In this document: in pieces, positions 5,315 through 60,300 of the stretch
Position numbering within the stretch: position 1 is the stretch's first letter
Layout of the letters: each line of letters opens with the position of its first letter
Origin: a virus
DNA length: 64,000 bases
Strand: one strand, 5' to 3'
IMG/VR virus record: IMGVR_UViG_3300023074_000001
Coordinates: 62,001-126,000 of that record
Translations under genes and position numbers: made by a program
Notes under the pieces: generated by a model
What the model saw: the letters and a program-made list of their open reading frames with translations, nothing else
What the model was told of the DNA's origin: nothing
Database searches by the model: none

Positions 5315-5354
5315 GTGATAAACGTTCTGCCAGGGTCTTAACACCTTGCGTAGA

Positions 5355-5424
5355 CTGACTGAGCTAATAGGTAGCGCCAATTCGTTAAGGGATTGGTTAT
5401 CAGGTTCGAACCCTGACAGTTAGC
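5355..5424 (+). tRNA. tRNA-like element, anticodon unclear
   Basis: Acceptor CTGACTG (5355-5361) pairs with CAGTTAG (5417-5423); T-arm TCAGG-TTCGAAC-CCTGA (5400-5416) is canonical. The D-arm is short (GCT/AGC) and the anticodon stem CAATT/GATTG encloses eight bases (CGTTAAGG), so no standard anticodon with U33 can be placed. Could be a decayed tRNA, an eight-base-loop tRNA, or a mimic. Confidence 0.5.
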
Positions 5425-5575
5425 TTATCCCATTGATGTATAAGCATCCCTTAAGGGTGAAAGCATATTCTGATCTATAATCAGGATTGAGCGGAATTAA
5501 CCGCATGGGGCAAACTCGCCAGTTAGTCTAACAGAGTACCTTCCGGAGGGTACGTAATTCTGCTAGACTCTGTGC
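5425..5575 (+). other. Noncoding stretch full of hairpins
   Basis: Between the two tRNA-like elements. CTGAT/ATCAG and GCGG/CCGC form small hairpins, and a longer imperfect one spans 5526-5568 (GTCTA...TAGAC outside, GTACC...GGGTAC inside). No ORF with a ribosome site. Probably part of one noncoding transcript. Confidence 0.45.
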
Positions 5576-6895: not shown

Positions 6896-6935
6896 AACAC
6901 CCCTGAGAACTTGACACTGAGTTCTCAGGGGTGTT
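6896..6935 (+). terminator. Perfect 16-bp hairpin merged with the next promoter
   Basis: AACACCCCTGAGAACT (6896-6911) pairs exactly with 6920-6935. The loop holds the -35 TTGACA and the right arm fills the spacer of the following promoter. Confidence 0.8.
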
Positions 6936-6940
6936 AGTGT
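6911..6940 (+). promoter_or_regulatory. Promoter TTGACA-18-TAGTGT inside a hairpin
   Basis: -35 at 6911-6916, -10 at 6935-6940. Drives 6977 through the leader CATCAGCAAGACAACGAG. Confidence 0.75.
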
Positions 6941-7729: not shown

Positions 7730-7758
7730 TTGACAGTGCTTGGTTGCCCTGGTAGTGT
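7730..7758 (+). promoter_or_regulatory. Promoter TTGACA-17-TAGTGT overlapping an inverted repeat
   Basis: -35 7730-7735, -10 7753-7758. TGCTTGGTTGCCCTG (7737-7751, the spacer) is repeated inverted and perfect at 7768-7782, so the mRNA leader cannot include both arms; as DNA it is a 15-bp operator-like palindrome. Confidence 0.75.
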
Positions 7759-7801
7759 TCTTCACATCAGGGCAACCAAGCACTTAGCGAGAGGCAAGAA
7801 A

Positions 7802-8588: not shown

Positions 8589-8636
8589 TGGTCTCATTGC
8601 AAGACCTAAGAGATTCTGAGAGAAAGAGAATCCATC

Positions 8637-9629: not shown

Positions 9630-9720
9630 ACCCTTATAGCTCACTGGGAGAGCACACAGCCCCGGCTAACAACCGGATTCTGGCTAGTGGTTAGGGCAGG
9701 TTCAAATCCTGCTAGGGGTA
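9630..9720 (+). tRNA. tRNA-like element with extended anticodon arm
   Basis: Acceptor ACCCTTA/TAGGGGT, D-arm GCTC-ACTGGGA-GAGC and T-arm GCAGG-TTCAAAT-CCTGC are all good. The middle 42 bases are abnormal: CCGG-CTAACAA-CCGG gives a loop like CU-AAC-AA (Val), but eight extra bases precede it and AGCC/GGCT could extend the stem around a bulge. 91 bases in all. Decoding ability uncertain. Confidence 0.5.
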
Positions 9721-9830
9721 CTTTTTAGACGTACAGTCTGCTATAGTCGCGGGTAGCCTTGTAATGACTGTGCCAGGGTGTTGACCAACCTAGGATAAGG
9801 TTGATGCCTTGAAATTGCCGCGGCCTAAAC
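9721..9830 (+). other. Noncoding gap between tRNA-like element and small RNA
   Basis: 110 bases with no ORF. A TATAGT at 9742 has no matching -35. GCGGG (9749) may pair with a later CCGCGG, giving another small folded RNA; not convincing by eye. Confidence 0.3.
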
Positions 9831-9859
9831 TTGCAAAATCAGTTTTCACCTGTTAGGGT
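9831..9859 (+). promoter_or_regulatory. Promoter TTGCAA-17-TAGGGT for a small RNA
   Basis: -35 9831-9836, -10 9854-9859. The predicted +1 (about 9866) is the first base of the stem of the RNA at 9866-9949. Confidence 0.75.
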
Positions 9860-9865
9860 TACGTA

Positions 9866-9949
9866 GCAAGGCGAGGGATAACCGAAATGTAAGGTTGGTT
9901 ATCTTAAACAACAGCTTAGGCTCTCAACCTAGACCGTGCCTCGCCTTGC
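9866..9949 (+). ncRNA. Structured small RNA, three-way junction
   Basis: 84 bases. Outer stem GCAAGGCGAGG (9866-9876) pairs perfectly with 9939-9949 (11 bp). Inside, GATAACC pairs with GGTTATC (7 bp) and TTAGG with CCTAG around a 7-base loop CTCTCAA. So a three-way junction starts at the predicted +1 of its own promoter. It has no T-arm and is no tRNA. No ORF. The 3' arm overlaps the -35 of the next promoter (9946-9974). I know no family for it. Confidence 0.65.
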
Positions 9950-10010: not shown

Positions 10011-10412
10011 ATGAAGACTTACGCGGACTATCTCAACACCCTGACGGTCAAGGCTCTGCGCGAGATTGTTTCCCAGTTTGGCTACAAGGGTACCTCTAAG
10101 TTCCTTAAGGCTAAGTTGGTTGAGATTGTTGACATGGAGGCCGGGGTCGCCTACGATGACGCGGTGAGTGAGAACCGTAAGCGCGTCGTGACCAAGATCG
10201 CTGCCGGTGCTTCGCTCAAGCTGGGAGGATTCGACTCCAGCGCATTCACCAATCACGTGCTGCCTATCGAGCGTGTGGAGCGTAAGGTGAACAACTACAT
10301 GCGTCAGAACAACAGCGATAAGCTTACTCCGGCTCAGTGGCGGCGTACCCGCAAGGCGATGCGTAAGGCTGGCATCAAGACCCTCAGTGAGTTGACTCTC
10401 ACCTTCCCCTGA
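10011..10412 (+). CDS. SAP-like small protein, paralogue 2
   Basis: 133 residues, ATG behind GGAAGG. Residues 11-40 (LTVKALREIVSQFGYKGTSK, then LKAKLVEIVD) match the SAP/Rho-N pattern and the same region of the genes at 686 and 13076. The C-terminal KLTPAQWRRTRKAMRKAG is basic. Probably binds DNA or RNA. Confidence 0.65.
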   Translation: MKTYADYLNTLTVKALREIVSQFGYKGTSKFLKAKLVEIVDMEAGVAYDDAVSENRKRVVTKIAAGASLKLGGFDSSAFTNHVLPIERVERKVNNYMRQNNSDKLTPAQWRRTRKAMRKAGIKTLSELTLTFP

Positions 10413-10648: not shown

Positions 10649-10693
10649 ACCACACACCCTCATTTGCCTCACGGTAAAGGTGTGTGGTAGTGT
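10649..10693 (+). promoter_or_regulatory. Hairpin-embedded promoter TTGCCT-18-TAGTGT
   Basis: ACCACACACC (10649-10658) pairs exactly with 10679-10688. The -35 (10664-10669) is in the loop, the right arm is in the spacer, the -10 is 10688-10693. Combines a hairpin after 10631 with the promoter of 10729. Confidence 0.7.
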
Positions 10694-10728: not shown

Positions 10729-11637
10729 ATGACGGATACGCGAGCACACACCTTTGACTGCGACTGCACCAGCTGCAACGCTCAGGATGCCGCTACTCCG
10801 GTTGGTATGGATCTCTTCCGCAAGCCGACTGCCATCCGTAATATCACTCCGGTAACGACTCAGACGACCGGGCCGGTTCGTCACCTGAAAGCTGGTCAGC
10901 GAGTCGGTAACGGTCGGGTTCGCAAGATCAGCGACAAACAGGAGTGGTACATCAATAAGCTGATCAATGAGCGTGACCTGACTGACCTCAAGATCCTTTC
11001 GAATCAGACCATAGACCCGGATGAGATTCCCTACATGGGGTTGCCTGCCGCTAAGGCTCTCATCGAGAAGTTGCTCGGAATGCCCTTCAAGGGAACTGAT
11101 TCCCCCGTTCCCGCTAAGCAGGCTATTCCGGGTTCCCCCAAACAGCAGAAACTCATTTCCGATCTCGCAACCGAGCGTAATCTGTCAGAATCAGATCTCG
11201 CGGCAATGGTCAAGATCTTCCCTAACGCAAGCAACCTGATTACGGCGCTGTTCAAGCTGCCTAAGCCCAACAAAGCTGATATGCTCAAAGAGGAAATCGC
11301 TAAGGCTACCGACAACGACGAATACATTCCGACCAAAATCATTCCTGGTTTCTACAAGGACAACAACAACGATGTGTGGAAAGTACAATTCAATAAGGCA
11401 CAGACGGGAATGTACGCTCTGCTGCGCATTACCCCTAAGAAGTACGAATACACACCGGGTGCTATCAACAGCATCACTCCTGAGATGTTCGTCAGTCTCA
11501 ATCCTCTCGATATCACGCTGGAGGAAGCTAAGGCATACGGTCGTAAGACTGGCTCCTGTTACATGTGTGGTCGGGAGCTGACCAAGCAGGAAAGCATTGA
11601 TGCTGGTATCGGACCTATCTGTGCCGGTAAGTTCTGA
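10729..11637 (+). CDS. DUF6011-like zinc protein
   Basis: 302 residues, ATG behind TAGGGAG. The C-terminus (SCYMCGRELTKQESIDAGIG then PICAGKF) is the DUF6011 zinc motif: CxxCGRxLT...S...GIGPxC. Residues about 60-180 hold two repeated helical segments beginning QEWYINKLINERDL and QQKLISDLATERNL, a pattern also seen in actinobacterial helicase-associated proteins. Residues 200-265 form a beta-rich part. A nucleic-acid role is likely; no catalytic motif is visible. Confidence 0.7.
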   Translation: MTDTRAHTFDCDCTSCNAQDAATPVGMDLFRKPTAIRNITPVTTQTTGPVRHLKAGQRVGNGRVRKISDKQEWYINKLINERDLTDLKILSNQTIDPDEIPYMGLPAAKALIEKLLGMPFKGTDSPVPAKQAIPGSPKQQKLISDLATERNLSESDLAAMVKIFPNASNLITALFKLPKPNKADMLKEEIAKATDNDEYIPTKIIPGFYKDNNNDVWKVQFNKAQTGMYALLRITPKKYEYTPGAINSITPEMFVSLNPLDITLEEAKAYGRKTGSCYMCGRELTKQESIDAGIGPICAGKF

Positions 11638-12725: not shown

Positions 12726-12763
12726 GGATGGGGGTTGCAAGATCGGCCCCCATCCACTAGGGT
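12726..12763 (+). promoter_or_regulatory. Hairpin-embedded promoter TTGCAA-17-TAGGGT for a small RNA
   Basis: GGATGGGGG (12726-12734) pairs with CCCCCATCC (12747-12755). The -35 is in the loop (12735-12740), the -10 at 12758-12763. Predicted +1 near 12770, the first base of the RNA below. Confidence 0.75.
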
Positions 12764-12770
12764 TTGTGTT

Positions 12771-12912
12771 GTAAGGCAAGCGGGACGCGGTAGGCGACAC
12801 AAACACCGGTAAGCAGAAGCAAGGCACAGGATGTCTTGGGGATGTAATCGGTGAAGAAAGCCTAGTAGTTCTCGAAAAGCAGATGATCGCTACTTTCCTC
12901 CGCTTGCCTTAC
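12771..12912 (+). ncRNA. Structured small RNA closed by a 13-bp stem
   Basis: 142 bases. GTAAGGCAAGCGG (12771-12783) pairs perfectly with 12900-12912, and begins at the predicted +1 of its own promoter. The interior has no open frame with a ribosome site. The 3' arm contains the -35 (TTGCCT) of the next promoter. A long closing stem at the 5' end recalls 6S-like or regulatory RNAs only in outline; I recognise no family. Confidence 0.65.
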
Positions 12913-12932
12913 CAGACAACCTCTGATAGTGT
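12904..12932 (+). promoter_or_regulatory. Promoter TTGCCT-17-TAGTGT
   Basis: -35 12904-12909 within the stem of the preceding RNA; -10 12927-12932. +1 near 12939 matches the start of the next stem. Confidence 0.7.
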
Positions 12933-12937
12933 TTCTC

Positions 12938-12998
12938 TCAGAATCAGATACCGACGTAACCGCGCAATGCGGGCTAACACAACTGGTGAAGATTCTGA
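12938..12998 (+). ncRNA. Structured small RNA, 61 bases
   Basis: TCAGAATC (12938-12945) pairs exactly with GATTCTGA (12991-12998); inside, CCGC/GCGG (12960-12972) forms a hairpin. It starts at the predicted +1 of its promoter and stops ten bases before the next -35. No ORF. Confidence 0.55.
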
Positions 12999-13008
12999 CA
13001 GATTCAAC

Positions 13009-13037
13009 TTGCACGGCAACCGCAAGCCTGGTAGTGT
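13009..13037 (+). promoter_or_regulatory. Promoter TTGCAC-17-TAGTGT
   Basis: -35 13009-13014, -10 13032-13037; leader with ATCAGCAAGTCAACGAG leads to 13076. Confidence 0.75.
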
Positions 13038-13075
13038 TCTCCATATCAGCAAGTCAACGAGCTAGGGAGTGCATC

Positions 13076-13765
13076 ATGTCGGAAGCCCTGAAGACCTACT
13101 ACAGCCTCAGCGCGAAGCTCCCCCGCACCAACTCGGTTCGTGCTGCCGCCGCCAGCTTGGTCCAGTCTTCCGCCATGGGCACCAACGAGGAGGTCATCCG
13201 CAAGGCGAACGGCTGGCTCCTCCAGGAAATCTTGGAAATGGGCTTGACGACCGATGACGGCTCGACTAGTGTTGACCACAACAGCAACGACAACGCCTCG
13301 GAGGACACCATGTACGCCGACACCCTGAACTCGAAGAACTACACCGTCAAGGCTCTGAAGGAGATCGCTAAGCGGATGGGGCTCAAGCGGTACTCGGCGC
13401 TCCGTAAGGCTGACCTGGCGAACCTGATCGCGGAGAACATCGAGATTCCGGTGATCCTGAGCACCGAGGTTGAGGCTGACATCGTGCCGATCAGCGAGAT
13501 CATGGAGGCGGTCAAGGCTGAGCTTGCCGCTAGCACCCCCGTTAAGGCTCCTCAGATGGCCGCTACCGAGACAGATGCGGATGAGGATGCTCCCCTGACG
13601 GTAGAGGAGATCGTGACCGCCTACACGAACATGAAGCGCACGTGGAACCGTGCAACCGGCAAGCTTGCCCTGAGCCTGATGACCAAGCTGATCAAGATGC
13701 GCACTGAGGTCAAGGCCATGGGGTTCAACCCGGTGGCCGTGGGTATGGGTTACTCGGTAGCGTGA
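13076..13765 (+). CDS. Two-part SAP-like protein, paralogue 3
   Basis: 229 residues from ATG 13076 behind AGGGAG. Residues 1-60 are helical with no known match; residues 79-229 (from MYADTLNSKN) are a full SAP-like paralogue of the genes at 686 and 10011 (VKALKEIAKRMGLKRYSALR, then KADLANLIAE). The codons are far more G/C-rich at third positions than in neighbours, suggesting recent transfer. A complete promoter and ribosome site lie inside the frame at 13244-13309, so the C-terminal part is probably also made alone. Confidence 0.65.
   Translation: MSEALKTYYSLSAKLPRTNSVRAAAASLVQSSAMGTNEEVIRKANGWLLQEILEMGLTTDDGSTSVDHNSNDNASEDTMYADTLNSKNYTVKALKEIAKRMGLKRYSALRKADLANLIAENIEIPVILSTEVEADIVPISEIMEAVKAELAASTPVKAPQMAATETDADEDAPLTVEEIVTAYTNMKRTWNRATGKLALSLMTKLIKMRTEVKAMGFNPVAVGMGYSVA
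13244..13272 (+). promoter_or_regulatory. Internal promoter TTGACG-17-TAGTGT within a gene
   Basis: -35 13244-13249, -10 13267-13272, then CGGAGGACACC before an in-frame ATG at 13310. The leader (CACAACAGCAACGACAACG) is like that of 10011. Probably an old intergenic region turned into coding sequence. Confidence 0.65.
13310..13765 (+). CDS. Nested SAP-like protein from the internal start
   Basis: 151 residues, same frame as the gene at 13076, from ATG 13310 with GGAGG seven bases upstream and its own promoter. Domain layout equals the stand-alone paralogue at 10011, which argues that this was once, or still is, a separate gene. Confidence 0.5.
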   Translation: MYADTLNSKNYTVKALKEIAKRMGLKRYSALRKADLANLIAENIEIPVILSTEVEADIVPISEIMEAVKAELAASTPVKAPQMAATETDADEDAPLTVEEIVTAYTNMKRTWNRATGKLALSLMTKLIKMRTEVKAMGFNPVAVGMGYSVA

Positions 13766-13779
13766 CATACCTCACAGGA

Positions 13780-13815
13780 TAGGGGTTGCATACGGTAGCC
13801 CCTACCTACTAGGGT
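13780..13815 (+). promoter_or_regulatory. Hairpin-embedded promoter TTGCAT-18-TAGGGT
   Basis: TAGGGG (13780-13785) pairs with CCCCTA (13799-13804); -35 13786-13791 in the loop, -10 13810-13815. Drives 13856. Confidence 0.65.
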
Positions 13816-14505: not shown

Positions 14506-16485
14506 TTAGCCTAAATAGCGCCAGAATCCTTCCGGTGTCTTCTCCAGTCTACCCTCTGACTGCATAGCGGTGAGCCTCTTACTGACCCATGATTTACCTC
14601 TGTCTGCCGTCATGGATTCCTGTATTTCCTTGTTGACGAAGGTAGTCTTTCCTTCGGCTTTCCAGGACTCCAGAATATTGTAAACCTCCGCAATAGCTGA
14701 AGCAGTCTCATAAGGATCTGTACCTAAATTCCCAGTAGTTTGCGCCTTGGTAGGAATTACTTGAGTAGGTTGTGCGGGACTCAAGTCTATAGTTTCTAGA
14801 TCCTCCAATGTCAATACTTGCGTATCAGGTGCTACCGGCCAATCCTTTGTGGTGTCTCTGAATCCTCTGTTGGATCTCATTTCCTGCCAGGAGGTACTAC
14901 CCGCAGCTACACTATCTCTATAAGCCTGGTAATCCAAACCTAATGCATCAGCGGTAATATTGTCCATAGGATACTCAGGATATGAATCCACATGCTGCTC
15001 TAGATTTCTTACATCTATCCAGTCACTAAGAAGCTGATGAGACGCTAGTCTCTGATCTATCCCAGCAGCCTCTAGATAGAAATGGCCGGGGAATCTATCC
15101 TGCCATAAATGCGGGCTAGCTCCCGATGAACGAGCATACTCCGATAACCCGAACTCAGCATCTCTTTTAGCTTTGACGCCGAAACACATATTACCGCCGA
15201 GGTTATAGCGAGCTGAGGTATTGATACGGTCAGCAGTAGCACGCTGAAGACTAAGCACAATAGTTATTCCAGCAGAACGAGCAGCCTCTAGAAGTTCGAT
15301 CAAATCATTGACCTTAGCAAAACGAGCAGCCTCCTCCAGATGGAAAATCAAGAAGTTAAGACCGCAACCTGACTCCCAATGAGATAATCCTATGCTGGTA
15401 AGGTAATTAGTACGAGCCTCAACAGCATTGATGACAGCATCAATCTGTTTCAGACAATCATCCTCGGTCCAGGCGAACCAAGCCAGCTTAGAAGCCAGAG
15501 GCCCCCCTGTCTGCATACCTTTAGCAGGATCTCCATAGATGACAGACACCTCACTACGAGCCAATACGGTACCATAAATAGCCTGCCAAGCCTTTGACTT
15601 ACCTGTTCCTGGCATTCCTACAGTAAGGAAATGCTGAGATGAGCCTCCATCTTTTCCAGCAATATAGATGACACCACGCTGACCTGTGTCATAAGTAGCG
15701 AATCCTACAGGAGCAACAATCGATTGACCAGGGTATTCTGGCCCCAGCCAAGGATTCTTAGTCTTAAAAGGATTCTCATCGAGAATAGTAATATCTACTT
15801 CACCTTCGATACCGGAATCTGTTTCTGAAACGTGTACTAGAGTACGAGGCTTACCAGCTATTTGAGCCATCTCGATAGCCTTACTCTTAGCATCCTCTAT
15901 TCTTTTACCTAAGCTAAGTTTCATACGGTAGACAGCACCATTACTGGTTTTGTAGCTCTTTTCCTTGTTGATATGGGTAGATTCACCCAGACCGATAGCA
16001 GCAAAGGGATTCTCACTTTTAGTGCTGTTCTCGTTGTCTTCACCTCTGTAGGCCCACCTGCGAATACACCAGGATAAACCTAGAACAGCTCCACCGTACA
16101 TGAAAGTATAGACCGTAGGCATACCGAACATCCACTCACCGAGATCCTGCCATACTGCAATAATCATCCATACGTGTACTAATACAGAAGTAACAGCAGC
16201 ATGTACAGAAATGAAGTGATGAAATTGGTCTCTAGGTCGAAAAAGTTTCCAGGCTAATGCTGATAAAATCAGCATACTAACAACAATAATAATTGTCAGT
16301 ACCTGACTAGCATCTACTGCGGAGGTATCCCCCCAATTCACCTGTGCCCATACACCTAATCTACTGATAACAGCCATGAGAAAAGCTAAACCCGCCCCGA
16401 TGAGCATAGCAATATACGGTAAAGCTTTACCGAACAGTGCGTATTCATCATCGTAGCGGGTTACGTTAATGTTTCTTGTTGCCAC
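14506..16485 (-). CDS. TraB/FtsK-like DNA translocase
   Basis: 659 residues from GTG 16485 behind AGGAGTCGCT (an upstream ATG at 16536 lacks a site). Four N-terminal membrane helices (about residues 20-45, 62-82, 93-115, 122-142), then a RecA-like motor: Walker A GMPGTGKSK near 290, Walker B FLIFHLEE near 380, and the FtsK/TraB-like segment LSLQRATADR. The last 60 residues form a winged helix (VNKEIQESMTADRGKSWVSK...), as in FtsK gamma or TraB, which bind short repeats. In Streptomyces plasmids TraB alone moves double-stranded DNA between cells. The repeats 14423-14505 lie directly beyond its stop. Role in this phage inferred. Confidence 0.75.
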   Translation of the reverse strand: MATRNINVTRYDDEYALFGKALPYIAMLIGAGLAFLMAVISRLGVWAQVNWGDTSAVDASQVLTIIIVVSMLILSALAWKLFRPRDQFHHFISVHAAVTSVLVHVWMIIAVWQDLGEWMFGMPTVYTFMYGGAVLGLSWCIRRWAYRGEDNENSTKSENPFAAIGLGESTHINKEKSYKTSNGAVYRMKLSLGKRIEDAKSKAIEMAQIAGKPRTLVHVSETDSGIEGEVDITILDENPFKTKNPWLGPEYPGQSIVAPVGFATYDTGQRGVIYIAGKDGGSSQHFLTVGMPGTGKSKAWQAIYGTVLARSEVSVIYGDPAKGMQTGGPLASKLAWFAWTEDDCLKQIDAVINAVEARTNYLTSIGLSHWESGCGLNFLIFHLEEAARFAKVNDLIELLEAARSAGITIVLSLQRATADRINTSARYNLGGNMCFGVKAKRDAEFGLSEYARSSGASPHLWQDRFPGHFYLEAAGIDQRLASHQLLSDWIDVRNLEQHVDSYPEYPMDNITADALGLDYQAYRDSVAAGSTSWQEMRSNRGFRDTTKDWPVAPDTQVLTLEDLETIDLSPAQPTQVIPTKAQTTGNLGTDPYETASAIAEVYNILESWKAEGKTTFVNKEIQESMTADRGKSWVSKRLTAMQSEGRLEKTPEGFWRYLG

Positions 16486-16561
16486 AGCGACTCCTGTCTT
16501 ATTGTCCTCTACTCTAGAGAGCATAAGAGTCAGCATAGCACGATTATTTCTTAGTGTGCAA

Positions 16562-32362: not shown

Positions 32363-33440
32363 CGTTGGACACCTTTACAGGAGAATAATCATGCTTAGGC
32401 TTACAACGACGCAACCACTCTGGACGAATGTTCTTACCATCGTAAAGATTAAACAGAGCCCAAGCATAGTTATGATCCTTTGCCTTCATAGCAAATTCCT
32501 TCTTGCTCGGGTTGACTCCAATTTCAGTAAGAATTCGATCATAGCTGATGCAGCAATACTCTACAAACTCATCAACCTCAGTATCAATGTCGTCCTGAAC
32601 TCCGCGAACAAAGCCGTGGAACTCATCCGGTACCTTCTCGATAAGTTCATCAACAGTACCATCTACCATAGCCTGCCACACAGAACGAGCATTCAGTCCT
32701 GTAACAATACGGTGAAGTGCGATGTAATCCTCCTGCTTAATCTTGACACGAACATCATGATTGTACAGGTTGACAACAAAGCCTTCCTTACCTGCGCGTG
32801 GAGGTGCCTCTAGTGCCTCTCGAAAAGTAGTGTACGGAAAAGACTCAGCCTTAGGTCCGGGCCAACTCCAATCCAGTACACCAGCATCCCAGTTGTCGCC
32901 GGTTGAGATATCTACTGAAGCCAGAAGAATTAAATCATCCATGTCGCCGTAATCACACACAATACGGTTCTCGGGATAGATAATTTCAAACAACAGAGTA
33001 ATACCCTTAGGAGGAACATAATTTGCGTACTTGGTACGGAACAACTTAGTAGCATGGATAGCCTGCTCGGAAGCGAAACTACCGCGAGTAGCAATAGCGT
33101 ATTCACCACTCAGAGGTTCACGATACAAAATACCCAGGGAACCATCCATCTTGTCAGAAACAACAGCAGGCTCATCAAGATCGATAGTAGGACAACCTAC
33201 CTGGCCGTAGTTGAAGAACTTAGGTAGCGGACGAGCAACAATCCAATTGAAGGCATCCACAATAAGCCCACGACAATTCATGGTGACCTTATTCCAAACA
33301 CCGTCGAATGCTGCTTTTTCGGTGTAGTTAAGGATAAACAGTTCAGGATTGTCAGGGTGAGTATTAACACGGACATAGCCCTGCTCAAGCATGTTAGCAA
33401 ATGCATCCTCTCGAAAGAGGATGTTAGTGTGATCCTTCAT
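32352..33440 (-). CDS. RNA ligase, T4 Rnl1-like
   Basis: 362 residues from ATG 33440 behind GAGGAGTAACACC. Nucleotidyltransferase motifs in order: I KMDGS (K97 takes AMP), III/IIIa FEIIYPENRIV (151-161), IV EGFVV (219-223), V VKIK (232-235). It seals 5'-phosphate and 3'-OH RNA ends with ATP. With the kinase-phosphatase at 29315 it forms the pathway that rebuilds tRNAs cut by anticodon nucleases. Confidence 0.9.
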   Translation of the reverse strand: MKDHTNILFREDAFANMLEQGYVRVNTHPDNPELFILNYTEKAAFDGVWNKVTMNCRGLIVDAFNWIVARPLPKFFNYGQVGCPTIDLDEPAVVSDKMDGSLGILYREPLSGEYAIATRGSFASEQAIHATKLFRTKYANYVPPKGITLLFEIIYPENRIVCDYGDMDDLILLASVDISTGDNWDAGVLDWSWPGPKAESFPYTTFREALEAPPRAGKEGFVVNLYNHDVRVKIKQEDYIALHRIVTGLNARSVWQAMVDGTVDELIEKVPDEFHGFVRGVQDDIDTEVDEFVEYCCISYDRILTEIGVNPSKKEFAMKAKDHNYAWALFNLYDGKNIRPEWLRRCKPKHDYSPVKVSNDAD

Positions 33441-57382: not shown

Positions 57383-60300
57383 ATGACATCCCCCGGTGGA
57401 GAACACATCAGTCGTTATCGTGCTCTTGGTGAGTTTGATAATCTTATCCGTGAAGCTAATAAAGCTAAGCGAGCGCTTCGTGAGCTACGAGAAGAAGAAG
57501 CTAAGTTAAACGCACAATCTTTATCTGATGATAAAAAGATAACAGCATCTAAGCTGGAGCGTGCAAAAGCTGAAAAGTCTAGTACTGATTCTGCTAAAAA
57601 AGCTACTGCTGATTTAAATCGTGGCGACCAAGCAGGTAAGTCTGGTGAGGATGCCGGAACATCATATACTCGTGGCCTTGGTAGAGGTATTGATAAAGGC
57701 AGGCAGTCACCAGAGAATCGTCGCTTTCTAGATGCAGCAACTCAAGCATTAAAGGGTGCCTTTGAAAAAGCAGGTACTGACTCTGGTACATCGTTTCAAG
57801 GAAACTTCGGGAAAGCATTAAGAGGTTCAGGCGGAAGCTCATCACCTCTTAATGCTGCTATGACTCAGAAGCTTCGTGAGTTACGTGAGCAAGCTGGTCC
57901 TGCTGGTCAGGATACAGGTAATCGTTATGTTATGGGTTTCGCTAGTAAAATTAGAGACCTCAATAACATTCTTCCACTATTAGGTCAAGATAAGCTTGAC
58001 CTAAATGTAGACATAACTGATGCACAACAATCGATGAAGGCGCTTGAGTTTGAGCTTAAGCGTCTATCTCATGTTACCGCTGAACCTCGTGTTCGTATTG
58101 ACGCTAGTCGCGCACTAGATAATTTACGTGCCATCCAAAAGCTGTTCAAGGATGAAGTAGCTGAGGACATCATCAAGGAGTCAAGACGTATTCAAGATGA
58201 GCTAAAGGTTATCGACAATCTGCCATCTGGTAAGGCTTTTAAGTTCTGGACTCTTACTGCACTTAGCGATATGAGTCGAGTATTCAAGGAAGCCGACAGA
58301 GGCACCTCGGTATTCCAAAGGCTACGTCAGTCTATTGCTGCATCAGGTTCAGGTGGCGGCGGCAATTATTTCAAGACTTTGATTTCTGGGTTCGATGATC
58401 TTTCTGGAGCCAGTTCCAGAGTTCTTCAGAGATTAGGTCGAGTTTCCGGTGAACTCTACCGTATGCCTGGAGTTATTGCTGTACTTCTATCTACTATTCC
58501 CGCATTAATTAGCGGTCTAGGTGGTCTGGTAGGTGCCGCAGGTAGTGTAGGTAGCGCATTAGGTTCATTGTCTGGATTCCTTGCGGCAGCACCTGGTCTG
58601 TCATTTGCATTTATTGGATCAATAGGCGCTATGTCCGCAACTATAGGTGGGCTATCTGATGTATTCAAGAATGCACAGAGGGCAGCCGACGCAGAAGCTG
58701 AGGCAAAAGAAAAGTCCCGACTTGGTACAGAGAAGGCTCTTACAGCTGCGCAGAAATATAAACTAAGTCTTGAATCTTTATCACCTGCTACTGAAGAGGT
58801 AACCTTAGCTCTTGTAAAGTTTTCTGAGAAATACGGAGAAGTTCAAAAAAGAGTTGGCGAAAACTTCTTCAAGGAGATTGCAAAAGATACAGGAAAGCTT
58901 AATGAAGTACTTCCTATTTTAGAAAAGTTCTTTGGCAAATCCGCTACTGCTTTAGGTAAGTTAGCTGACGAAGCTTTAAGAATGATTACTTCAGGACCGT
59001 TTAAGCGTGATTTCGGTATCATCGCCGAGAATAATGCTGGATATATTCAAGATATGGGTAAAGCAGGTTTGTCTCTTGTTACTTCTTTGAAGAACATAGC
59101 TATTGCTGCTGGACCGTTTACTGCTTGGGTAACAGGAGCCTTGAGAGAAGGTGCGGAGACCTTTGCTGATTGGTCAGCTCAGGCACGCTCAGATGGAACT
59201 ATTCAAGAATTCCTAGACGAAACTACAGAGTCTGGAAAGATTCTATGGCAGATTCTTAAGGATCTAGGTAATGTTATTAACTCATTTTTCCAGGCGACAG
59301 TAGACGAAGGACAGAGTTATCTTCAAAATCTACAGGACATCACTAGTGGTTGGGCAGATGTAGCTAAGGCGCAAGAGGGGGCTAATTCTCCTCTACGCAC
59401 CTGGCTAGTACAAATACGCCCAATTATGGCATCTTTGGGTGAATTAATTTCTGCATTGGCTAAGGGTATTGGTGGACTAGCCAGTAATCAAGACAATATC
59501 AAGACCATGATTGATTTGCTTGATACGTTGCGTACGAAGGTTCTTCCACCTATTCTTGATATTCTTCAGCATCTTAATGATTCTGGAATTGCTGTTACGG
59601 TAACAGAAGCTATTGGAACATTGCTAGAAGCTATTGCTAAATTCTTGGATAGCGGCGCTACTACAGCGTTGTCTGTCTTTGTTACAGTACTAGCTAATTT
59701 TGCTGAACTAATTTTTAGTTTTGCTAGTTTACCCGTCATCAGTGATATTCTAGGTGGTTTAGCTTCAGCTATTGCTACCCTAGCTGCGGTATCTATTGTG
59801 GCAAGATTTACAGGTCTATTCAAGCTGTGGGACTTCTTTACATGGATGGTACGTAATAAGGGTAACCTCTCTGGAGCATTCGCTGATGCCGCACGTGGAG
59901 CCGCCGGATTATCTCAAGTTGGTGGACAACAGGCGTTACCTTCAAGGGTTCCTTCACCAGTAACTAGTGTCGGGTCAGACGACTTTATTGTTAATCAGAC
60001 TAGGGCTACCGAAAAGCTAGGCGAGGCATCTCGCAGGGCTTCTGTTCAGACAGGTGCATTCAGTAGAACATTATCAGCTATTAGAGTTGCTGGCAATACA
60101 GCTCGTACGGCGCTATCTAGTCTATCAGGATTTATAGGCGGCCCCTGGGGTATTGCTTTAATTGGAGCAACGGTTGCTATTAGTGCAATTACCAGTAAGC
60201 TATCTGATAACAAGAGAGAAGCCGAAGATACTAAGACTGCATTCTTAGCCTTGAAGGGTGCCTACGGAGAGTTAAAAGAAGGTAATACGGAAAGTATCAG

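What the first reader, a model, noticed from the sequence alone, without database searches (positions are those of the whole stretch)
12726..13037. Tandem array of promoter - structured RNA - promoter - structured RNA - promoter
Two noncoding RNAs lie head to tail: 12771-12912 (closed by a perfect 13-bp stem) and 12938-12998 (8-bp stem plus inner hairpin). Each begins at the predicted +1 of its own TTGNNN-17-TAGNGT promoter, and the 3' arm of the first contains the -35 of the next. Long matching arms placed exactly at +1 are hard to get by chance. I know no RNA family like this; it may be an undescribed set of early phage regulators, protein decoys or sRNAs.
Basis: partly seen in the sequence, partly recalled or inferred. 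Interest (0 to 1): 0.87.

Follow-up and report, generated by a model that had tools for sequence, protein, structure and literature searches.

The report
Phage array of promoter-driven structured RNAs
A large virus of (probably actino-)bacteria carries, in front of a gene for a Rho_N-domain protein, two small RNA genes in a row, each with its own start signal; one belongs to a new RNA family with a conserved internal loop, found so far in only four related viruses and of unknown function.

Summary
At 12735-13037 three TTGNNN-17-TAGNGT promoters alternate with two stem-closed non-coding segments, and the -35 of promoter 2 lies in the 3' arm of the first.

RNA B (12938-12999) is a member of a new structured-RNA family. 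Five copies share 24 invariant core positions (ACGUAACC-hairpin-GGGCUAACACAAC). They lie in four related phage contigs, and 6 of 10 tested base pairs show compensatory changes. Two further variants (ACGUA-hairpin-AUAACAAC) occur in one contig. All seven copies start within about -3 to +12 of a predicted +1. Rfam, 84,980 prokaryotic species genomes, the named phages and the rest of IMG/VR gave no further copy.

RNA A (12771-12912) has no sequence homologue, so covariation could not be tested. Its architecture (stem closed at +1, next -35 in the 3' arm) recurs at 9866-9949 and in two relatives. Closing stems of 10 bp or more occur at 4 of 62 promoter pairs, against 0.2% by chance. All five such RNAs lie upstream of genes for Rho_N or Lsr2 proteins.

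Best reading: small stand-alone RNAs with 5' ends locked in a stem, RNA B being bound through its conserved loop by an unknown, probably protein, partner. Function and expression are unproven.

The parts
12726..12755 (+). hairpin GGATGGGGG/CCCCCATCC with the -35 of P1 in its loop and the T-rich -10 region behind it: probable terminator of the upstream gene fused to promoter P1
   Evidence: sequence; the same layout at 6897-6940, 10650-10690 and 13779-13802
12735..12763 (+). promoter P1, TTGCAA-17-TAGGGT
   Evidence: promoter class validated against reversed-pattern control
12771..12912 (+). RNA A, about 142 nt, closed by 13 perfect bp at the predicted +1, branched inside; contains AAGCAGAUGAUC, also found in terminator-like hairpins upstream of Lsr2 genes in this phage and two relatives
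   Evidence: no sequence homologue of the whole RNA found
12904..12932 (+). promoter P2, TTGCCT-17-TAGTGT; -35 inside the 3' arm of RNA A
12938..12999 (+). RNA B, about 61 nt, outer stem 8 bp, inner stem UACCG/UGGUG, hairpin CCGC-GCAAU-GCGG
   Evidence: fold; homologues; covariation
12954..12983 (+). conserved core of RNA B: ACGUAACC-hairpin-GGGCUAACACAAC (asymmetric internal loop ACGUAA / GCUAACACAAC)
   Evidence: 24 invariant positions in five copies
13009..13037 (+). promoter P3, TTGCAC-17-TAGTGT, of the downstream gene
13076..13765 (+). downstream gene, 229 aa, Rho_N domain at residues 87-118; orthologous locus in relative G004 also has a B-type and an A-type RNA in front of it
   Evidence: Pfam PF07498, 28.9 bits, cut-off 24.9
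9831..9859 (+). promoter TTGCAA-17-TAGGGT of RNA C
9866..9949 (+). RNA C, 84 nt, same architecture (11 perfect bp GCAAGGCGAGG/CCTCGCCTTGC at the predicted +1, next -35 TTGCAA in the 3' arm)
10011..10412 (+). gene after RNA C; N-terminal Rho_N-like domain, 47% identical over 59 aa to the Rho_N gene behind the array in G004

Best explanation
12735-13037 holds two small stand-alone non-coding RNA genes, each read from its own host-type promoter, in front of the promoter of a Rho_N-domain gene. Each RNA closes on itself at or next to its first nucleotide. This probably protects the 5' end from 5'-dependent decay and stops 3' exonucleases at the closing stem, so the phage gets short, stable RNAs without a separate terminator or processing site, and the next promoter can begin inside the 3' arm. 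RNA B carries an asymmetric internal loop (ACGUAA / GCUAACACAAC) kept almost letter for letter while the helices around it change by compensatory substitution. That is how a binding site looks: I propose that a protein, of phage or host, recognises the loop, and that B acts in trans as a decoy, scaffold or co-factor. RNA A is a second, faster-evolving RNA of the same architecture. Shown: the sequence features, promoter class, RNA-level covariation of B, and recurrence of the architecture. Inferred: transcription, stability mechanism, protein partner, action in trans.
For: B: five copies in four contigs with 24 invariant core positions; 95.7% of cells paired, 6 of 10 pairs with changes on both sides, 0 of 500 shuffles reach the covariation score, partners slid by 1-3 columns give at most 1 such pair. 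G-U pairs in the inner stem (4 of 5 copies at one pair) point to RNA, not a DNA palindrome. Two variants in G004 were found by promoter plus stem alone and then proved to share the motif. One of them is a free-standing 54-nt RNA with a T-run behind it, followed by another promoter. Copies are followed by unrelated genes (only window and G004 B2 share a gene family), and in both of these another promoter comes before the gene. Syntenic array in G004: promoter-B-promoter-A-type(201 nt, fold z -5.5)-promoter-Rho_N gene. The A-type RNA upstream of Lsr2 is 84% identical between the window's own contig and G003, with 3 double and 2 single compensated pair changes and none broken.
Against: No transcript data. 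RNA A itself has no homologue and no covariation. In three copies (G003, G017, G004 B1) B lies upstream of an ORF as a leader would, and in the window nothing evident terminates B before the Rho_N gene. No partner protein identified. Five to seven copies are few for covariation statistics.
Confidence: 0.5

Rival explanations
1. Cis-acting leaders: A and B are 5' untranslated segments of alternative, longer transcripts of the downstream gene and control it (attenuation, antitermination of the put type, translation, or a riboswitch).
For: No terminator seen between B and the Rho_N gene; in G003 and G017 an ORF with a ribosome-binding site starts 29-35 nt behind B, and in G004 B1 a small ORF follows on the same transcript. 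A-type RNAs always precede Rho_N or Lsr2 genes.
Against: Genes behind B are unrelated except one pair; another promoter stands between B and the gene in the window, G004 B2, B3 and B4, so those genes need not carry the RNA; G004 B4 ends in a T-run. No fixed spacing to the gene.
Confidence: 0.27
2. Partners of the phage's own Ro60 protein: A, B and C are Y-like RNAs that gate Ro60.
For: The contig encodes Ro60/TROVE, as do G003, G004, G008 and Microbacterium phage Magritte. Nine motifs (C/U)CGAA-N-(C/G)GRUUAUC cluster around Ro in three contigs. RNA C carries a close variant, ACCGAA...GGUUAUCUU.
Against: Neither A nor B contains the motif; no Y RNA family of Rfam matches; Ro lies some 40 kb away.
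Confidence: 0.08
3. DNA-level or transcription-insulating elements: inverted repeats that stop upstream transcription or bind a regulator next to each promoter, with no stable RNA product.
For: Many promoters here sit in or next to hairpins (6897-6940, 7735-7783, 10650-10690, 12726-12755), which look like terminator-promoter fusions.
Against: For B, the conserved loop, G-U pairs, and covariation in an inner hairpin are RNA features. The closing stems of A and C end well before the next T-rich -10, too far for a terminator.
Confidence: 0.1
4. Chance folding around real promoters.
For: Low fold energies are common in this contig (28 of 667 windows with z < -4).
Against: Long closing stems at promoter pairs are about 30 times more frequent than background, covariation of B, similar array in G004.
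Confidence: 0.05

Closest known systems
Bacterial and phage Y RNAs (YrlA) with Ro60
   Same: Short RNAs with 5' and 3' ends paired in a terminal stem and conserved internal elements; the phage encodes Ro60
   Different: A and B lack the YCGAA...UUAUC motif seen near Ro in these phages and show no tRNA-like module; no Rfam match. RNA C comes closer.
6S RNA
   Same: Length of RNA A and long closing stem
   Different: A is multibranched rather than a long hairpin with a central bubble; no Rfam 6S match
Phage-encoded sRNAs such as 24B_1 of phage Phi24B (PMC10732415), or cis leaders such as HK022 put (own knowledge)
   Same: Small RNA from a phage promoter; put RNAs also lie directly behind early promoters
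   Different: No sequence relation known; put acts in cis on polymerase, whereas B stands in front of unrelated genes or of another promoter
Large ornate RNAs GOLLD and ROOL (PMC12286853)
   Same: Structured non-coding RNAs, some of them phage-borne (own knowledge)
   Different: Much longer; no Rfam match here

Membership tests
Y RNA / YrlA (Ro60 partner) | Ro60 (TROVE) protein encoded by the same replicon | tested here: met
   PF05731 over its cut-off, 126 bits with neighbouring segments, G000:33846-34865
Y RNA / YrlA (Ro60 partner) | Ro-site-like motif as found near Ro in these phages, (C/U)CGAA...(C/G)GRUUAUC | tested here: not met
   absent from A and B; RNA C has ACCGAA...GGUUAUC
Y RNA / YrlA (Ro60 partner) | match to a Y RNA covariance model | tested here: not met
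   no match, even at permissive E-value
6S RNA | match to 6S models, single long hairpin with large central bubble | tested here: not met
   no Rfam match; A folds multibranched
Any Rfam 15 family | score above gathering threshold | tested here: not met
   window, G003 and G004 copies: none except tRNAs elsewhere
Riboswitch / cis-leader class | same aptamer in front of related genes | tested here: not met
   genes behind the B copies unrelated except one pair
Riboswitch / cis-leader class | ligand-dependent control of the gene in cis | not testable with these tools
   needs experiment
RNA B family defined here | conserved internal loop ACGUAA/GCUAACACAAC between two covarying helices, close behind +1 of a TTGACA-17-TAGTGT-type promoter | tested here: met
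   promoter positions

The most novel reading that the evidence does not exclude
These phages run a whole set of small structured RNAs (B family, A-type RNAs, Lsr2-associated RNA, Y-like RNAs with their own Ro60), each read from its own promoter and placed next to genes for Rho_N and Lsr2 proteins. Together they would form an RNA-protein programme for take-over or protection of the cell, in which RNA B captures a specific protein through its conserved loop.
Probability: 0.2. Interest if true: 0.85.

Novelty: new variant of a known kind. Interest (0 to 1): 0.6.

Why it matters
Small RNAs of lytic phages are poorly known because they are invisible to gene finders. A covariation-supported family with a fixed loop and a recurring location gives a concrete bait for finding its partner. 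The repeated layout (promoter, stem-closed RNA, next promoter starting inside the stem, Rho_N or Lsr2 gene) gives a rule for finding more of them.

Tried and rejected
Close relatives by flanking proteins 10729-11634, 14509-16536 and 13076-13762 in IMG/VR: none. DNA similarity in named phages: none at 1e-5, only weak hits at E 2 or worse for B. Core pattern in 84,980 prokaryotic genomes: none. Relaxed core patterns in IMG/VR: the other hits lack the hairpin and were judged chance; L092 was judged a probable chance match (odd hairpin, no promoter of this class seen). A conserved stretch of the Lsr2-associated RNA occurs in no other IMG/VR contig. Antisense targets of the B loop in three contigs: nothing convincing. 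Fold z-score as sole evidence: rejected as too common (a first run timed out). Mechanical ORFs overlap the stretch (for example 12883-13065); rejected as genes because B copies differ by single-base indels and compensatory changes. A complementarity between the start of B (TTTCTCTCAGAAT) and three gene leaders (ATTCTGAGAGAAA at 8613, 8849, 9181) was noticed; only about 8 nt lie inside the predicted RNA, so it was not used. Literature searches for phage ncRNAs of this kind found no described match.

Full report
Context. The window is bases 62001-126000 of a 135,654-base virus contig with portal, terminase and tape measure genes and many tRNAs. The best named relative by portal is Microbacterium phage Magritte (47% over 74% of the protein), so an actinobacterial host is likely. 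The nearest IMG/VR contigs are 73-88% identical in the portal. Three contigs give a comparable region: G004 (108 kb), G003 (105 kb) and, found by the RNA itself, G017 (25 kb).

Promoters. TTGACA-17-TAGTGTT, up to two mismatches, occurs 21 times forward in this contig against 1 for the reversed pattern, 19 against 1 on the early strand of G004, 12 against 2 in G003. Whether they are early is not known.

RNA B. The stretch 12938-12999 folds into outer stem, inner stem and hairpin. In G004 two copies of its core lie on the corresponding strand, in G003 one, in G017 one. The core ACGUAACC-hairpin-GGGCUAACACAAC is invariant at 24 aligned positions, while the hairpin is CCGC/GCGG, CCUGA/UCAGG or CCGCU/AGCGG and the inner stem UACCG/UGGUG, GGCCG/UGGCC, GGCAG/UUGCC or GUCA/UGAC. 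Counted on the alignment: 95.7% of cells paired, 6 of 10 pairs with both sides changed, 0 of 500 shuffles as high; sliding the partners destroys it. A covariance model finds these five copies (E 1e-14 to 6e-17) and nothing else convincing in 25 related records including Magritte. An independent scan for promoters followed by a stem brought out two G004 RNAs (59748-59691 and 53929-53876, minus strand) that carry ACGUA-hairpin-AUAACAAC between long perfect stems. The second is a 54-nt unit followed by ATTATTTTT and another promoter. By direct reading, in all seven copies the outer stem starts between about -3 and +12 of the predicted +1.

RNA A. 12771-12912 is closed by 13 perfect pairs. No homologue of the whole RNA was found, so there is no covariation test. 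Its architecture recurs: RNA C at 9866-9949 (11 pairs), G003 7776-7660 and G004 46653-46453 (24 pairs with wobbles), each with the next promoter's -35 at the end of the 3' arm. Background for a closing stem of score 10 or more at random places with the same geometry is 0.20%; observed 4 of 62 promoter pairs on the gene-bearing strands. A fifth, upstream of the Lsr2-like gene in the window's own contig (G000:60611-60731), is 84% identical to the G003 one, with 34 pairs unchanged, 3 changed on both sides, 2 on one side and none broken; there too it is followed by a promoter, a second stem-closed stretch and another promoter before the gene. Part of RNA A (AAGCAGAUGAUC) also occurs in 14-bp terminator-like hairpins upstream of the Lsr2 genes of G000, G003 and G004; its 11-mer AGCAGATGATC was found nowhere else in the stretches read.

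Neighbourhood. All five A-type RNAs precede a Rho_N-like gene (window 10011, 13076; G004 46388) or an Lsr2-like gene (G000 60.8 kb, G003 7.6 kb). Three other Rho_N-like genes show no such RNA, so the link is not absolute. In G004 the order promoter-B-promoter-A-promoter-Rho_N gene mirrors the window with A and B swapped, and the sequence behind the two Rho_N genes aligns (G000 75762-75858 with G004 45753-45657), so the locus is orthologous.

Function. The pattern (fixed asymmetric internal loop, free helices, several copies, unrelated genes behind it, one free-standing unit) fits a protein-bound RNA acting in trans better than a riboswitch, but three copies sit where a leader would. The phage encodes Ro60 and has Y-like motifs around it; A and B do not carry that motif, RNA C nearly does. 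No function is shown.

Verdict. Real, more than chance, not in known families; B strongly supported as RNA, A by architecture only; mechanism open.

Noticed in passing
window 9866-9949 (RNA C): Third promoter-RNA-promoter unit; its first hairpin reads AACCGAAAUGUAAGGUUGGUUAUCUU, close to the Y-RNA-like motif found around the phage's Ro60 gene, and a second hairpin looks like an anticodon arm.
   Followed up: partly
G000:33846-34865 (outside the window), G003, G004, G008, Magritte: Phage-encoded Ro60/TROVE protein, with nine (C/U)CGAA...UUAUC motifs clustered nearby in three contigs, several followed by tRNA T-arm-like hairpins: probable phage Y RNAs.
   Followed up: partly
window 6897-6940, 7735-7783, 10650-10690, 12726-12755, 13779-13802: Hairpins that contain or span promoters (for example a 17-bp perfect inverted repeat around the -10 at 7735-7783): probable terminator-promoter fusions that insulate neighbouring small genes.
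   Followed up: no
G000 about 59630-59705, G003 about 8130-8060 (-), G004 about 59530-59435 (-): Conserved element upstream of the Lsr2-like gene: 14-bp covarying stem with inner loop AGUAUGUGGA / AGAAGCAGAUGAUC, T-run behind it, and a TTG-17/18-TAGNAT promoter-like sequence over its 5' arm.
   Followed up: partly
G000:23853-23905, 32646-32706; G004:103781-103723, 99495-99448, 92991-92929 (-); G003:52102-52050 (-): Stems of 9-13 bp closing 48-63 nt at +1 of promoters, several directly in front of tRNA genes, some with the conserved arm GUAAGCAGG/CCUGCUUAC.
   Followed up: partly
window 13244-13311: A promoter-like site (TTGACG-17-TAGTGT) lies inside the Rho_N gene, followed by an in-frame ATG at 13311 just before the Rho_N domain: possible short form of the protein.
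   Followed up: no
window 8613, 8849, 9181; G004 about 50630 (-): Repeated gene leader ATTCTGA(G/C)AGAAAGAGAA directly before start codons; its complement overlaps the start of RNA B.
   Followed up: no
window 9630-9721 and about 5350-5430: Atypical tRNA-like sequences (a 92-base 'tRNA-Val' and an uncalled one with a T-arm and GGUUAUC).
   Followed up: no
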